Source: Clostridia bacterium | GTDB lineage: Bacteria; Bacillota_A; Clostridia; Oscillospirales; CAG-272 | DNA length: 32,715 nucleotides | Direction of reading: 5' to 3' | Assembly (NCBI GenBank): GCA_017453335.1 | Contig: JAFTKI010000092.1 | Coordinates: 1-32,715 of the forward strand | Shown here: positions 6,194-32,052 of the stretch, one piece after another | Layout: each line of letters begins with the position of its first letter | Numbering within the stretch: the first letter of the stretch is position 1 | Position numbers and translations under genes: made by a program | The notes under the pieces: model-generated | What the model saw: the letters and a program-made list of their open reading frames with translations, nothing else | Database searches by the model: none | What the model was told of the DNA's origin: nothing

Positions 6194-7633
6194 ATGAATC
6201 AGCTTTTACAGAATCTCTCCCCTGCCGCTTCGGTTATCATTTCAGTGGCTTGCATGCTGTTCTTCGGCTTTGCCATGACGCGCGTAACCAAGCGATTGCG
6301 ATTGCCAAACGTGACCGCTTACATCATCACGGGAATCCTGATCGGTCCCTACTGTCTGGATCTGATCCCCGCAACCGTCGTGGAGGGAATGGATTTTCTC
6401 TCGGATATTGCGCTTGCGCTGATCGCGTTCAGCACGGGAGAATTCTTCCGTCTTTCCGTGCTCCGAAAAAACGGCGCTAAGGTTGTGGTGATCACCCTTT
6501 TCGAGGCGTGCGTCGCATCCGTGCTCGTATTTGTGTTCGCCTACCTGATCCTGCATCTGCAGCTGGCGTTTTCCATCGTACTGGCAGCACTCGCGGCGGC
6601 AACCGCCCCCGCTTCCACAATGATGACGATCCGACAAACGGGTGCAAAGGGAGATTTCGTCAACACCCTTTTGCAGGTCGTGGCGCTTGACAACATCGTA
6701 GCGCTCCTTGCCTACAGCATTGCGATCTCCGCTGCGGTGGCGCTCAATTCCGGCAGCCGCATTCAGCCTGCCGACATCCTGCTTCCGATCCTGACCAACA
6801 TTGCGATCCTGCTCCTTGGCGGTGTGTTTGGCTTTCTCATGAAATTCCTGATGACAAAAAAACGCTCGACCGATAACCGCCTGATCATTTCCCTGGCGCT
6901 TCTGTTCGCGTTTTGCGGCATCTGCACACTTCTGGACGTCTCTCCTCTGCTCGGATGCATGTCCATGGGAACGGTGTACATCAATCTTACGGGCGACGAC
7001 AAGCTCTTCAAGCAGCTCAATTACTTCAGCCCACCGATCCTCTTGCTCTTCTTCGTGCGCTCCAGCGTCAACTTCCGTCTGGATTCGCTGTTCGCCTCCT
7101 TCTCCTCCATCGGTACGACTCCTTTGATCGTGGTGGGACTTCTCTACTTTACGGTTCGCATCATTGGAAAATACGCAGGCGCGTTTTTAGGCTCTTTGAG
7201 CGTGCGAAAGCCTGCTCGGACACGCAATTTCATCGGGCTTGCTCTGATCCCGCAGGCGGGAGTTGCGATCGGTCTTGCCGCGATGGGGGCGCGTGAATTG
7301 GGCGGCGAGAGCGGTATGGCGCTTGAAACCATTATCCTTGCCTCCTCTATTCTCTACGAGCTGGTCGGTCCCGTTTGCGCCAAGCTCTCACTCTACCTTT
7401 CGGGCTCCTACTCCGATCGACTGGAGGATCTGGTGGCGGTGGAGGAAACGCACGCCACGGGCGAGAAGAAGACCGAAGTCGAGCTTCTGATCGAGCGGAT
7501 CCAGCGAATCCAAGAGCACATTCCTCCCGTTGGAGCACTGAACCAGGAAAATGAGGATGCATTTACGGAGGCGGCTGAGGAGCAATACAAGCCGATCCAT
7601 CCAAACGACCGCCGTTTCGGACGGCGGCGATAA
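6194..7633 (+). CDS. CPA2-family cation:proton antiporter
   Basis: A 479-residue membrane protein with about 12 helices over residues 10-400, followed by a soluble tail of about 75 residues. NVTAYIITGILIGPYCL (helix 2), the STGEFF segment, the LAALAAATAPASTMM stretch and the core ALDNIVALLAYSI match the Na+/H+ exchanger domain of the Kef/GerN/NapA type (CPA2). It likely exchanges K+ or Na+ for protons. There is no TrkA-N or TrkA-C domain; the tail is acidic and charged (ELLIERIQRIQEH) with an RRFGRRR end. AAGGAG lies 5 nt before the ATG. The MgtC-like gene starts 18 nt later in the same operon. Confidence 0.88.
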   Translation: MNQLLQNLSPAASVIISVACMLFFGFAMTRVTKRLRLPNVTAYIITGILIGPYCLDLIPATVVEGMDFLSDIALALIAFSTGEFFRLSVLRKNGAKVVVITLFEACVASVLVFVFAYLILHLQLAFSIVLAALAAATAPASTMMTIRQTGAKGDFVNTLLQVVALDNIVALLAYSIAISAAVALNSGSRIQPADILLPILTNIAILLLGGVFGFLMKFLMTKKRSTDNRLIISLALLFAFCGICTLLDVSPLLGCMSMGTVYINLTGDDKLFKQLNYFSPPILLLFFVRSSVNFRLDSLFASFSSIGTTPLIVVGLLYFTVRIIGKYAGAFLGSLSVRKPARTRNFIGLALIPQAGVAIGLAAMGARELGGESGMALETIILASSILYELVGPVCAKLSLYLSGSYSDRLEDLVAVEETHATGEKKTEVELLIERIQRIQEHIPPVGALNQENEDAFTEAAEEQYKPIHPNDRRFGRRR

Positions 7634-7651
7634 AACAAGGAGGACATACAT

Positions 7652-8368
7652 ATGATCGATCCCATTGCAAAGCTACTCGGTGCTTGGGCTACCGAACTGA
7701 ACCTTTACACCGTGATCCTACGCGTGGCACTCGCTCTGATCCTTGCCGCGATTCTTGGATGCGAACGCTCCAGCAAGCGCCATTCCGCAGGGCTTCGTAC
7801 CTTTATGGTGGTCGCACTCGCGACCTGTATCGCAATGCTTCTGGATTTCTATTTACTTGGAGGCATGGCAAGCGGGCTGTATTTGGTCTCTGCTGCCGCC
7901 ATGATCGGCTTGGCGATTATTACGGTCAACTCCATTGTGTACAGCTCCCGTAACCAGATCAAGGGGCTGACGACCTCTGTGGCGCTCTGGGCATGCGGGA
8001 TCCTCGGTCTTTGCATCGGCGCGGGCTTCTACACGGTTACGCTGGTCGCGTTCTTCGCAATGCTCTGCAGTCTTTCCTTCTTCCCTAAGATCGAGAGATA
8101 CCTCAAAAACCGCTCCAACCATTTTGAGGTGCATCTGGAGCTGAAGAATATTGCATACTTGCAGAATTTCGTTACTACAATCCGCGAGCTCGGTATGCGA
8201 ATTGACGATATTGAAGCAAATACCGCATATCAGAACTCCGGGTTGAGCGTGTATTCGGTTGCGATTTCGATCAGCAGCCGAGAACTGAAAAAATACAAAA
8301 CGCACAGCCAGATCATTGAGGCGCTGCGTTCGTTGGATTATATTTATCATATTGAAGAGATGAGATAA
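7652..8368 (+). CDS. MgtC/SapB-family membrane protein
   Basis: A 238-residue protein. The first 140 residues hold about five helices with the family block RVALALILAAILGCERSS, then SAGLRTFMVVALATC and the NQIKGLTTSVALWACGILGL stretch. The C-terminal 90 residues form a soluble ACT-like regulatory domain (MRIDDIEANTAYQNSGLSVY). MgtC proteins are linked to low-Mg2+ and acid survival through effects on ATP synthase, and many Firmicute members have unknown roles. It is co-transcribed with the antiporter upstream, which fits a role in ion or pH homeostasis (inference). AAGGAGG lies 8 nt before the ATG. Ends at a bidirectional terminator. Confidence 0.9.
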   Translation: MIDPIAKLLGAWATELNLYTVILRVALALILAAILGCERSSKRHSAGLRTFMVVALATCIAMLLDFYLLGGMASGLYLVSAAAMIGLAIITVNSIVYSSRNQIKGLTTSVALWACGILGLCIGAGFYTVTLVAFFAMLCSLSFFPKIERYLKNRSNHFEVHLELKNIAYLQNFVTTIRELGMRIDDIEANTAYQNSGLSVYSVAISISSRELKKYKTHSQIIEALRSLDYIYHIEEMR

Positions 8369-8374
8369 AAATCG

Positions 8375-8410
8375 AGGGAGCTTCACAAGGAAGCTCCCTT
8401 TTCTTTTTTA
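8375..8410. terminator. Bidirectional terminator, MgtC-like / NhaC-like
   Basis: Perfect 10-bp stem AGGGAGCTTC (8375-8384) and GAAGCTCCCT (8390-8399) with an ACAAG loop; TTTTCTTTTTT follows on the plus strand and ATTTTTATC on the minus strand. Confidence 0.92.
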
Positions 8411-10357
8411 CTTTTCGGGAATTGGTCTTCTTTTCGTGATGGCGCGGATCACAAACAGGGTTGCGACCGTCAGCACCGTACCGATTGCCAGGCAGATCCA
8501 TGCGTTCTGGACAAAGCCCGCAATGACGTACATCACGAAGGAGATCGCAGCAACCGTAATAGCATACGGCATTTGCGTCGAAACGTGGTTGAGGTGGTTA
8601 CAGCCGCCGCCCGCGGAGGACATGATGGTCGTATCCGAGATGGGCGAGCAGTGGTCACCGCACACAGCGCCTGCCAAGCAAGCGGAAATACCGATAATCA
8701 TCAGCGTGGAACCCGACGGGAAGATATAGGTCACGATCGGGATCAGAATACCGAAGGTTCCCCAAGAGGTTCCTGTTGCAAATGCCAGAACGCAGGCAAC
8801 CAGGAAGATGATTGCAGGCAGGAAGTTGTTCAGTCCTGCTGCCGCGTTGAACATCAGATCCGCTACAAAATATTTTGCGCCGAGAATCGTAGTCATTTCC
8901 TTGAGCGCCGTTGCGAAGGTCAAAATCAGAATCGCGGGTACCATTGCGATAAATCCTGAGGGGATGCAATGCATCATTGCCTTCATATTCATCAGGCGAC
9001 GGAGCGCAAAATAGATCATGATAATGACGAGGGCGATGAGGCCGCCCCAAGGAAGTCCGACGGTCGCATCGGTATCACCGAATGCGGTAACGAAATCAGA
9101 ACCGCTCAGAATACCGCCGTTATAAACCAGTGCAAACACACAAGCTACGATCAGCACGACGATCGGGAGGATCAGGTCGATCACTCTTCCCTTTTCCGCA
9201 GGCTCCATTGCCTCCGGCTCGCTCCGCTCGCCACTTGTGTACAGGTCACCGTGATGCTGCGCATTGTACTCATGGATGCGCATCGAGCCGTAGTCGTAGC
9301 CCATGACTGTGATCGCGATGATAAAGACGAAGGTCAGGAGCGAATAGAAGTTGAACGGAATTGCGGTAATGAAGAGGTTCAGTCCCTGTCCATCCTCCGC
9401 ATACTGGGAAACTGCCGCCGCCCAGCTGGAGATCGGAGCAATCATACAAACGGGGGCAGCTGTCGCGTCGATCAGATACGAAAGCTTTGCGCGGGAGATC
9501 TTGTGCGCATCGGTCACGGGACGCATGACCGATCCCACCGTCAGGCAGTTGAAATAGTCGTCGATGAAGATCAAAACGCCCAAGAAAAAGGTTGCAATCA
9601 TCGCGCCGACACGGGATTTGATATGGGTTCGTGCCCAACGTCCGAACGCCGCAGAACCACCAGCCTTATTGATCATCGCAACGATGATCCCCAGCTCGAC
9701 CAGGAAAATGAAGATGCCCGCCGTTCCGGAAACTGCAGAGATCAAGCCGTCATTCAGGAGCACGTCCACCGATTTGAGCGGATTGAAGTTTGCATACAGC
9801 AAAGCCCCCGACAGGATACCGATGAACAAGGAGCTGTAGACCTCCTTGGTAATAAGTGCCAGTCCAATGGCAATGATCGGAGGAAGAAGCGCCCAGAAGC
9901 TACCTCTGACCTTCGTCTCGCCCTCGCACGTGCCGCAATCCACCTTCATCACGCCCGTGGTCTCGTTTTCCTCGCAGACCTCACAGGTCGCCGCTTCCTC
10001 CAACGTATCGTACACGCTGATCAGCGGGCGGCATTCCTCGCACGCCACGCGCTCACACCACCCCGAGCCTTCACAAACGGAGCAATCCTTCCCATCCTCG
10101 CACGCAGGACAATCTACACGCGCAAGAGCCGTGGTCATGTTTTGGCAATTCGTGCACGCCTCAGCCGTTTCCAAAGAGCCCGACAGGCTTGCGGTCTTGC
10201 GGCAATCGTCACAGGTCACTTGCGTGGAAACACCCGTCGAATGACAGTCGACGCAGTTGCTGGTTTTCGCCGCGCCGCCCGTAACACCCGCTACGACCAG
10301 GAGCACAACGATCACCAAAGATGCGATCGCCAAAATGATTTTTTGCATTTTTGACAT
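8408..10357 (-). CDS. NhaC-type Na+/H+ antiporter with Cys-rich N-terminal insert
   Basis: A 649-residue protein. Residues about 150-649 form an NhaC-family (PF03553) antiporter with many helices; LIFIDDYFNCLTVG, GTSWGTFGILIP and GDHCSPISDTTIMSSAG are family hallmarks. It probably exports Na+, or an organic counter-substrate, for protons. Residues 6-29 form a separate N-terminal helix, followed by a 110-residue hydrophilic insert with 17 cysteines, including eight CxxC pairs (35/38, 49/52, 68/71, 83/86, 92/95, 106/109, 125/128, 141/144). One is CVDCH and another, CSVCEGSG, resembles a DnaJ zinc-finger repeat. Standard NhaC lacks this. The start MSKMQK at 10357 has AAAGGA upstream; the frame runs another 156 codons into the intergenic region and DUF6472 antisense, which is not coding. 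Own promoter at 10418-10446. Confidence 0.9.
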   Translation of the reverse strand: MSKMQKIILAIASLVIVVLLVVAGVTGGAAKTSNCVDCHSTGVSTQVTCDDCRKTASLSGSLETAEACTNCQNMTTALARVDCPACEDGKDCSVCEGSGWCERVACEECRPLISVYDTLEEAATCEVCEENETTGVMKVDCGTCEGETKVRGSFWALLPPIIAIGLALITKEVYSSLFIGILSGALLYANFNPLKSVDVLLNDGLISAVSGTAGIFIFLVELGIIVAMINKAGGSAAFGRWARTHIKSRVGAMIATFFLGVLIFIDDYFNCLTVGSVMRPVTDAHKISRAKLSYLIDATAAPVCMIAPISSWAAAVSQYAEDGQGLNLFITAIPFNFYSLLTFVFIIAITVMGYDYGSMRIHEYNAQHHGDLYTSGERSEPEAMEPAEKGRVIDLILPIVVLIVACVFALVYNGGILSGSDFVTAFGDTDATVGLPWGGLIALVIIMIYFALRRLMNMKAMMHCIPSGFIAMVPAILILTFATALKEMTTILGAKYFVADLMFNAAAGLNNFLPAIIFLVACVLAFATGTSWGTFGILIPIVTYIFPSGSTLMIIGISACLAGAVCGDHCSPISDTTIMSSAGGGCNHLNHVSTQMPYAITVAAISFVMYVIAGFVQNAWICLAIGTVLTVATLFVIRAITKRRPIPEK

Positions 10358-10417: not shown

Positions 10418-10446
10418 AGTATACCATGCTTTTCGACGTTTGTCAA
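10418..10446 (-). promoter_or_regulatory. Sigma-A promoter for NhaC-like antiporter
   Basis: On the minus strand: consensus TTGACA (10446-10441), a 17-bp spacer, TGG and TATACT (10423-10418). The 5' leader is about 55 nt. Confidence 0.88.
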
Positions 10447-10551: not shown

Positions 10552-10743
10552 ATGGAAGCAAAAAAAACCGCCACCAGCTGTGACGACTGCGTATTTTACG
10601 ATTACGACGAGGATTGGGATACCTACACCTGTCAGATGAATTTAGACGAGGATGAAATGGTTCGTTTCCTGACGCAAAAGCATCAGGCGTGTCCCTATTA
10701 CCGCTATTACGATGAATACAAGAGTGTTCAAAAGCAGAATTGA
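10552..10743 (+). CDS. DUF6472 small acidic Cys protein
   Basis: A 63-residue acidic, tyrosine-rich protein with CDDC, YDYDEDWDTYTC, LDEDEMVRFL and CPYYRYYDEYK, the blocks I associate with DUF6472 of Clostridia. The four cysteines (10 and 13 in CDDC, then TC and CPYY) suggest a small metal-binding fold. No function is known to me. GAAAGGAG lies 9 nt before the ATG, and there is a promoter and a terminator, so it is a single-gene unit. The reliable signals and conserved motif argue it is real despite its length. Confidence 0.82.
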   Translation: MEAKKTATSCDDCVFYDYDEDWDTYTCQMNLDEDEMVRFLTQKHQACPYYRYYDEYKSVQKQN

Positions 10744-31961: not shown

Positions 31962-32052
31962 GGAGGTGTATCGAAGTGATCATAACGGTCTCGACTCGAA
32001 ATCGAGTGGCGAGTAAAATCGCCCGTGGGTTCGAATCCCACCGCCTCCGCCA
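31962..32052 (+). tRNA. tRNA-Ser(CGA)
   Basis: A 91-nt class II tRNA decoding UCG. The acceptor stem pairs GGAGGTG (31962-31968) with CGCCTCC (32042-32048), with discriminator G and encoded CCA (32050-32052). The anticodon stem CTCGA/TCGAG encloses loop CTCGAAA with anticodon CGA at 31997-31999. The long variable arm (TGGCGAGTAAAATCGCCC) and the T arm GTGGG-TTCGAAT-CCCAC are both well formed. It has its own promoter and terminator. Confidence 0.97.

What the first reader, a model, noticed from the sequence alone, without database searches (positions are those of the whole stretch)
9920..10270. NhaC antiporter with a 17-cysteine, CxxC-rich domain between helix 1 and the core
Eight CxxC pairs lie in residues 35-144, including one CVDCH and a DnaJ-like CSVCEGSG. 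Ordinary NhaC proteins have no such region. Inferred: a redox- or metal-sensing (Zn, Fe-S or even heme) module attached to an ion antiporter, which would be a new architecture if conserved.
Basis: partly seen in the sequence, partly recalled or inferred. Interest (0 to 1): 0.7.

Follow-up and report, generated by a model that had tools for sequence, protein, structure and literature searches.

The report
Probable lysine transporter with cysteine ectodomain
The cysteine-rich stretch is real and belongs to a large gut-bacterial family of probable lysine transporters, in which it is built from one to four small four-cysteine, probably metal-binding, units that probably face the outside of the cell.

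Summary
Confirmed: the 649-aa protein at 8408-10357 (-) has 17 Cys and eight CxxC in residues 35-144. Among 291 non-redundant relatives (itself included), the stretch between helix 1 and the core has 0-1 Cys in 159 and 3 or more in 132. Of those 132, 119 have an exact multiple of four; none has 2, 6 or 10. The unit is one module, CxxC-spacer-CxxC, so a Cys4 metal site (probably Zn) is the best reading; heme and independent redox pairs are not. The window's array is a diverged duplication of a two-module block. Cys-free relatives carry signal-peptide-like sequence and acidic linkers there, so the stretch probably faces outside. The 'ion antiporter' label is doubtful: 172 of 295 related loci (157 of 267 without near-duplicates) carry a lysine-riboswitch match at this gene, which suggests a LysW-type lysine transporter. 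The window gene itself has none. Metal, topology, substrate and role are inferred; structure prediction of the module failed. New variant of a known kind.

The parts
8408..10357 (-). CDS, 649 aa, PF03553 Na_H_antiporter-family transporter (LysW-type by its relatives)
   Evidence: Pfam 140.1 bits vs cut-off 23; start and frame
10280..10351 (-). helix 1, residues 3-26: signal-anchor-like, positive N-flank
   Evidence: AF2 helix 3-26, block pLDDT 84-93; N-flank net positive in 202 of 203 relatives with a clear hydrophobic segment
9899..10267 (-). ectodomain, residues 31-153, acidic, Cys-rich
10202..10255 (-). Cys4 module 1 (C35-C52, CxxC-x10-CxxC)
   Evidence: positions; module rule
10100..10156 (-). 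Cys4 module 2 (C68-C86, CxxC-x11-CxxC)
   Evidence: positions
10031..10084 (-). Cys4 module 3 (C92-C109, CxxC-x10-CxxC; unpaired C101 lies inside it)
   Evidence: positions
9926..9985 (-). Cys4 module 4 (C125-C144, CxxC-x12-CxxC)
   Evidence: positions
10097..10258 (-). two-module block, copy 1 (residues 34-87)
   Evidence: local score 111 against copy 2; 0 of 1000 Cys-fixed shuffles reach it, mean 48.1, maximum 85
9923..10087 (-). two-module block, copy 2 (residues 91-145)
   Evidence: DNA repeats 174 nt apart; best DNA self-match at offset 171 nt, 41%
8411..9898 (-). transporter core, residues 154-649
10418..10446 (-). sigma-70-like promoter TTGACA-17-TATACT (11 of 12)
   Evidence: consensus match only
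8375..8399 (-). terminator-like stem-loop just after the stop codon
   Evidence: consensus match only

Best explanation
A LysW-type (NhaC-superfamily, IT-fold) transporter, probably for lysine, whose N-terminus is held by a signal-anchor helix and carries, on the outer face of the membrane, an acidic ectodomain made of four tandem Cys4 modules. Each module (two CxxC knuckles of the DnaJ/zinc-ribbon kind, here 10-12 residues apart) probably holds one metal ion, most likely Zn. The array grew by duplication of whole modules; here a two-module block was doubled. The most likely role is structural and accessory: a compact, metal-stapled acidic cap or tether at the substrate entrance, interchangeable in evolution with the acidic linkers of Cys-free relatives. 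Shown: Cys pattern, counts in fours, block duplication, negative charge, riboswitch association in relatives. Inferred: metal, outside location, lysine as substrate, structural role.
For: Counts in fours: of 132 non-redundant relatives with 3 or more ectodomain Cys, 119 are multiples of 4, 12 are odd, 1 has 14; none has 2, 6 or 10. On the 289-tip core tree at least 52 changes in site number; of 97 sister pairs 65 do not differ, 10 differ by 1, and of the 22 that differ by 2 or more, 12 differ by 4, 7 by 8 and 3 otherwise; of those 22, the 9 with support 0.9 or more all differ by 4 or 8. Genus-level set: 21 of 21 loci have 4, 8 or 12 (only 11 of them were new to the pool). Later genomes: of 69 new sequences 8 have 3 or more Cys: five 4, one 8, one 5, one 9. 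A single module stands alone in 76 relatives, all 76 as two pairs, so two neighbouring CxxC suffice. Outside: positive N-flank in 202 of 203; AxA-like pattern in 61 of 93 Cys-free relatives; signal-peptide-like starts before acidic linkers. Acidic: net charge negative in 132 of 132 Cys-bearing and 89 of 92 Cys-free ectodomains of 15 or more residues. Lysine: riboswitch match in 172 of 295 loci (13 of them built the model); 167 placed against the chosen start, all 167 on the same strand, 165 wholly upstream, median 78 nt; without near-duplicates 52 of 93 Cys-bearing and 105 of 174 Cys-free loci. lysW is described as a riboswitch-controlled nhaC-superfamily gene (PMC5584792, passages).
Against: The window gene has no lysine riboswitch, and a group of its relatives lacks it too. 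AF2 gave no confident fold for the Cys region (60 of residues 51-135 below pLDDT 50; mean 38 for a three-module piece alone), so knuckle geometry is unproven. 13 of 132 break the fours rule, the window protein with 17 among them. PMC11477304 (passages) states that the function of the riboswitch-controlled NhaC in C. difficile is unknown and may be true Na+/H+ antiport. A negative outer tail may be only a general bias; no control set of other ectodomains was run. The AxA pattern is rarer in Cys-bearing proteins (31 of 110), so for them the outside location rests on helix 1 and homology.
Confidence: 0.5

Rival explanations
1. Metal or redox sensor: outside Zn2+, Fe2+ or redox state loads the Cys4 modules and gates the transporter.
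For: Cys4 quantisation; direct attachment to the core; outer-pair Cys invariant in A1.
Against: Module number varies 0-4 with at least 52 changes and 21 presence/absence changes on the core tree; many relatives have no module.
Confidence: 0.15
2. Metal scavenging or buffering: the array collects Zn or Fe at the surface.
For: Up to four sites per chain.
Against: No recurrent metal gene beside it: a crude neighbour scan of loci L001-L080 found only two small recurrent groups, in 4 and 3 loci. In the 30 loci given to Rfam the riboswitches found were for lysine, besides T-boxes; none for a metal.
Confidence: 0.08
3. Disulfide-bonded or thiol-redox ectodomain (CxxC as thioredoxin-like pairs or structural disulfides).
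For: Location probably extracytoplasmic; CxxC motifs.
Against: Independent CxxC pairs would give 2, 6 and 10 Cys, of which there are none; 127 of 132 have an even number of Cys pairs.
Confidence: 0.12
4. Heme c or Fe-S electron carrier module.
For: CVDCH at 35-39; four Cys per unit would also suit a [2Fe-2S] or rubredoxin-type Fe site, which sequence cannot tell from Zn.
Against: For heme: His follows the first motif in 46 of 129 only; one CxxCH of eight in the window.
Confidence: 0.07
5. A genuine Na+/H+ antiporter of the NhaC kind that carries the modules, in relatives switched on when lysine is low to hold pH.
For: PF03553 core; proposed for the riboswitch-controlled NhaC in the passages of PMC11477304; the window gene has no riboswitch.
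Against: NhaC equivalog model 31.1 bits vs cut-off 370; the other riboswitch targets named in the passages seen are lysine biosynthesis and basic-amino-acid transport genes.
Confidence: 0.25

Closest known systems
LysW (COG1757, nhaC superfamily, lysine-riboswitch-controlled lysine transporter candidate; PMC5584792, passages seen)
   Same: NhaC-superfamily core; relatives of the window gene have the lysine riboswitch upstream on the same strand
   Different: the window gene itself lacks the riboswitch; the paper's main text holds none of the words cysteine, zinc, CxxC, signal peptide, N-terminal or extracellular
MleN (entry 9a59, an integrative model of MleN-MetQ; that MleN is a malate/lactate antiporter is recalled)
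   Different: 13% identity; this match starts at residue 153, so helix 1 and the Cys ectodomain are extra. In the tied matches to NaDC3 and NaS1 the aligned range starts at residue 1, so helix 1 may stand for a scaffold helix there
DnaJ central domain PF00684 / BSD2
   Same: CxxCxGxG knuckles; sibling P0010 scores 32.4 against the cut-off 32.7; profile A1 hits BSD2 chains at E 0.016 and 0.069
   Different: window segment only 14.2 bits; a single two-motif unit stands alone in 76 relatives; arrays have 1-4 units; on a transporter and probably outside the cell
Tet(35) (NCBIfam NF000013)
   Same: best NCBIfam hit
   Different: 187.6 bits against a cut-off of 750

Membership tests
PF03553 Na_H_antiporter family | Pfam model above its gathering score | tested here: met
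   140.1 vs 23 bits, residues 326-615
NhaC equivalog (TIGR00931) | score at or above curated cut-off | tested here: not met
   31.1 vs 370 bits
Tet(35) | score at or above curated cut-off | tested here: not met
   187.6 vs 750 bits
LysW-type lysine transporter | lysine riboswitch upstream of the gene itself | tested here: not met
   none in the window; but 172 of 295 related loci match, among them L001, the best genome hit, and L002, the nearest locus among the tree tips
LysW-type lysine transporter | transports lysine | not testable with these tools
   needs an uptake assay
DnaJ central domain (PF00684) | score at or above gathering score | tested here: not met
   14.2 vs 32.7 bits
Cys4 zinc-knuckle/ribbon modules | Cys in sets of four per unit | tested here: met
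   119 of 132 relatives exact multiples of four; the window has four CxxC pairs-of-pairs plus one extra Cys
Cys4 zinc-knuckle/ribbon modules | knuckle fold | tested here: inconclusive
   AF2 confidence too low
Cys4 zinc-knuckle/ribbon modules | binds Zn (or Fe) | not testable with these tools
   needs metal analysis
c-type cytochrome module | conserved CxxCH | tested here: not met
   1 of 8 motifs in the window; His after the first motif in 46 of 129 relatives

The most novel reading that the evidence does not exclude
A family of lysine transporters in gut Clostridia carries an outward-facing, metal-stapled acidic antenna whose metal sites are added and lost as whole Cys4 units (0-4), tuning capture of the cationic substrate or making transport depend on extracellular metal. 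No paper describing such an array on a transporter showed in the listings of the searches made here.
Probability: 0.25. Interest if true: 0.7.

Novelty: new variant of a known kind. Interest (0 to 1): 0.5.

Why it matters
It ties an unexplained Cys-rich segment to a probable lysine transporter and shows a simple evolutionary rule, cysteines gained and lost in fours, that predicts metal stoichiometry from sequence. It offers a natural series (0, 1, 2, 3, 4 modules on one transporter core) for testing what an extracytoplasmic metal module does to transport, and adds sequence evidence to the open question whether riboswitch-controlled NhaC proteins move lysine.

Tried and rejected
Heme c: rejected, His after CxxC not conserved.

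Nested DnaJ-like pairing (1-4, 2-3) against tandem pairs: not settled. For nested: strands of the window model are laid out as a nested hairpin, at low confidence; over all multi-module proteins mirror spacings are more alike than in shuffles (p 0.004); the window's own spacings (10, 15, 11, 5, 10, 15, 12, from the positions) are nearly mirror-symmetric. For tandem: over all proteins p 0.0005; in proteins with six or more pairs 46 of 69 alternate-spacing comparisons are equal (p 0.0002), while the mirror prediction gives p 0.42 and 0 of 16 for the in-between spacings. With four pairs both models predict the equality seen in 15 of 24. Spacing also reflects duplication history, so it does not tell which Cys share a metal; the stand-alone single module (76 relatives) tells more. 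That nested pairing is the DnaJ arrangement is recalled.

Structure of the module: the second AF2 job (three-module piece of L291, nine sequences) gave mean pLDDT 38 and is not used. The whole-protein fold search is filled by the core; nothing is claimed on the fold of the Cys part.

Conserved operon: not found with a crude scan of L001-L080. Module on other proteins: in 60 genomes of one genus the module search gave, judged by frame length and by the four loci read, NhaC relatives and DnaJ; other clades were not tried.

Rows dropped and parsing: ectodomains were cut automatically (start by ribosome-binding site and a home-made hydrophobicity score). Of 120 listed proteins 118 and of the first 194 loci 188 were parsed; three of these loci were then dropped for a short N-terminus, leaving 185. 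Of 94 later loci 89 parsed; 21 of 21 in the genus set. Near-duplicates were removed by shared three-letter words. P0086, whose deposited start is too early, was re-cut by hand; it has 5 Cys (still had it as 8). Cys at the helix border may explain some odd counts. The tree of 289 tips leaves out sequences with a short core; 13 of its 22 differing sister pairs have support below 0.9. One counted difference of 4 is between 7 and 11. The class table counted ten unscanned duplicate loci as negative; one search is the corrected one.

Full report

Is the segment conserved? The protein search scored 7,996 candidates and listed the best 120. The N-termini printed (the middle of the printout was cut; those rows were only handled by later scripts) keep helix 1, then a Cys segment, mostly of 2, 4, 6 or 8 CxxC, then the core. 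In a 43-sequence alignment the outermost four Cys (35, 38, 141, 144) are invariant while the inner ones come and go; in a 32-sequence alignment 141 and 144 are only nearly invariant. I added 80 loci from named genomes and loci from unnamed species-level genomes.

Cysteines come in fours. The first parse gave 211 non-redundant sequences: 113 with 3 or more ectodomain Cys, 103 of them multiples of 4. Later genomes gave 69 further ones, 8 with 3 or more Cys: five with 4, one with 8, one with 5, one with 9. A genus-level set gave 15 with 4, 4 with 8 and 2 with 12, so 21 of 21, but only 11 of these were new to the pool. Pooled: 291 sequences, 148 with 0, 11 with 1, and 132 with 3 or more. Of the 132, 119 are multiples of 4, one has 14, twelve are odd; none has 2, 6 or 10. 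The core tree (289 tips, FastTree) needs at least 52 changes in module number and 21 gains or losses. Of 97 sister pairs 65 do not differ, 10 differ by 1, and of the 22 that differ by 2 or more, 12 differ by 4, 7 by 8, and one each by 2, 3 and 9. Only 9 of the 22 have support of 0.9 or more; all 9 differ by 4 or 8. This is what Cys4 metal sites predict and independent CxxC pairs do not. The consensus halves are V-x-C-P-D-C-x-G-T-G and C-E-T-C-G-G-E-G, DnaJ-like knuckles; the siblings scanned come up to but not over the PF00684 cut-off.

How arrays grow. In the window, residues 34-87 and 91-145 align with a score of 111, against a mean of 48.1 and a maximum of 85 in 1000 shuffles that keep the Cys in place, and DNA repeats lie 171-174 nt apart. 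The two-module relative P0003 matches both copies. In 11 of 36 multi-module proteins with comparable modules, two modules resemble each other beyond the Cys at p below 0.01 (best pair taken, not corrected for that choice).

Where it sits. Helix 1 has a positive N-flank in 202 of 203 relatives. In Cys-free relatives the same place holds signal-peptide-like sequence (AxA pattern in 61 of 93; 31 of 110 in Cys-bearing ones) followed in many by acidic linkers. Ectodomains are net negative in 132 of 132 Cys-bearing proteins and in 89 of 92 Cys-free ones with 15 or more residues. I infer an outside location; no dedicated topology predictor was at hand and no control set was run for the charge.

What the transporter does. 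Rfam found lysine riboswitches upstream of the gene in 7 of 15 Cys-bearing loci and in 7 of 15 further loci. A covariance model from 13 of these matched 43 of 80, 52 of 99, 59 of 95 and 18 of 21 loci: 172 of 295, the 13 included. In the 167 that could be placed against the chosen start the strand is always the same and the riboswitch ends a median 78 nt upstream; two overlap the start, which I take for wrong starts. Without near-duplicates: 52 of 93 Cys-bearing and 105 of 174 Cys-free loci, 157 of 267 in all. PMC5584792 (passages) describes lysW, COG1757, as a widespread riboswitch-controlled lysine transporter gene of the nhaC superfamily. PMC11477304 (passages) says the function of the C. 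difficile one is unknown, lysine transport or Na+/H+ antiport. Against this: the window gene has no such riboswitch, nor does a group of its relatives. So the LysW reading rests on relatives; by the strict test the window gene fails that feature.

Function of the modules. Because related proteins have 0 to 4 modules on one core, I favour a structural, accessory role: a compact acidic cap or tether at the outer mouth, metal-stapled in some lineages and a plain acidic linker in others. A metal sensor, metal buffer or redox part is possible but fits the lability less well. Whether the negative charge helps to gather cationic lysine is a guess that can be tested.

Novelty. Paper searches for NhaC with zinc and CxxC, cysteine-rich domain, zinc ribbon, or signal peptide, and for CXXCXGXG or zinc ribbon with transporter, listed no paper whose title or abstract start describes such a domain; apart from the two papers named above none was opened. 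PMC5584792's main text lacks the words cysteine, zinc, CxxC and N-terminal. Only open-licence papers are held, so this is weak evidence of novelty. A precomputed Pfam label PF27659 on three siblings (P0005, P0022, P0114) was not returned for any of the three by the Pfam copy held, so newer Pfam may already model part of this protein.

Noticed in passing
L001-L310, upstream of the transporter gene: Lysine riboswitch match in 172 of 295 scanned loci, so members of this family annotated as Na+/H+ antiporter NhaC in Clostridia are probably LysW; absent in a group of loci such as L003, L004, L006-L008 and L086-L096.
   Followed up: yes
window 10552-10743 (+): A 63-aa DUF6472 protein (88.3 bits), itself with Cys, divergently placed beside the transporter gene.
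   Followed up: no
window 6194-7633 and 7652-8368 (+): A Na_H_Exchanger-family protein (PF00999) followed by an MgtC-family protein, convergent with the transporter gene.
   Followed up: no
P0011 and P0086 (protein search hits): Start codons look called too early: long extensions before helix 1.
   Followed up: partly
L131 and L153: Ectodomains with 11 and 7 Cys that break the fours rule.
   Followed up: no
P0005, P0022, P0114: Carry a precomputed Pfam label PF27659 that the Pfam copy held here did not return for them.
   Followed up: partly
window 31962-32049 (+): tRNA by Rfam, 47.5 bits; the only Rfam match in the window at gathering threshold.
   Followed up: no
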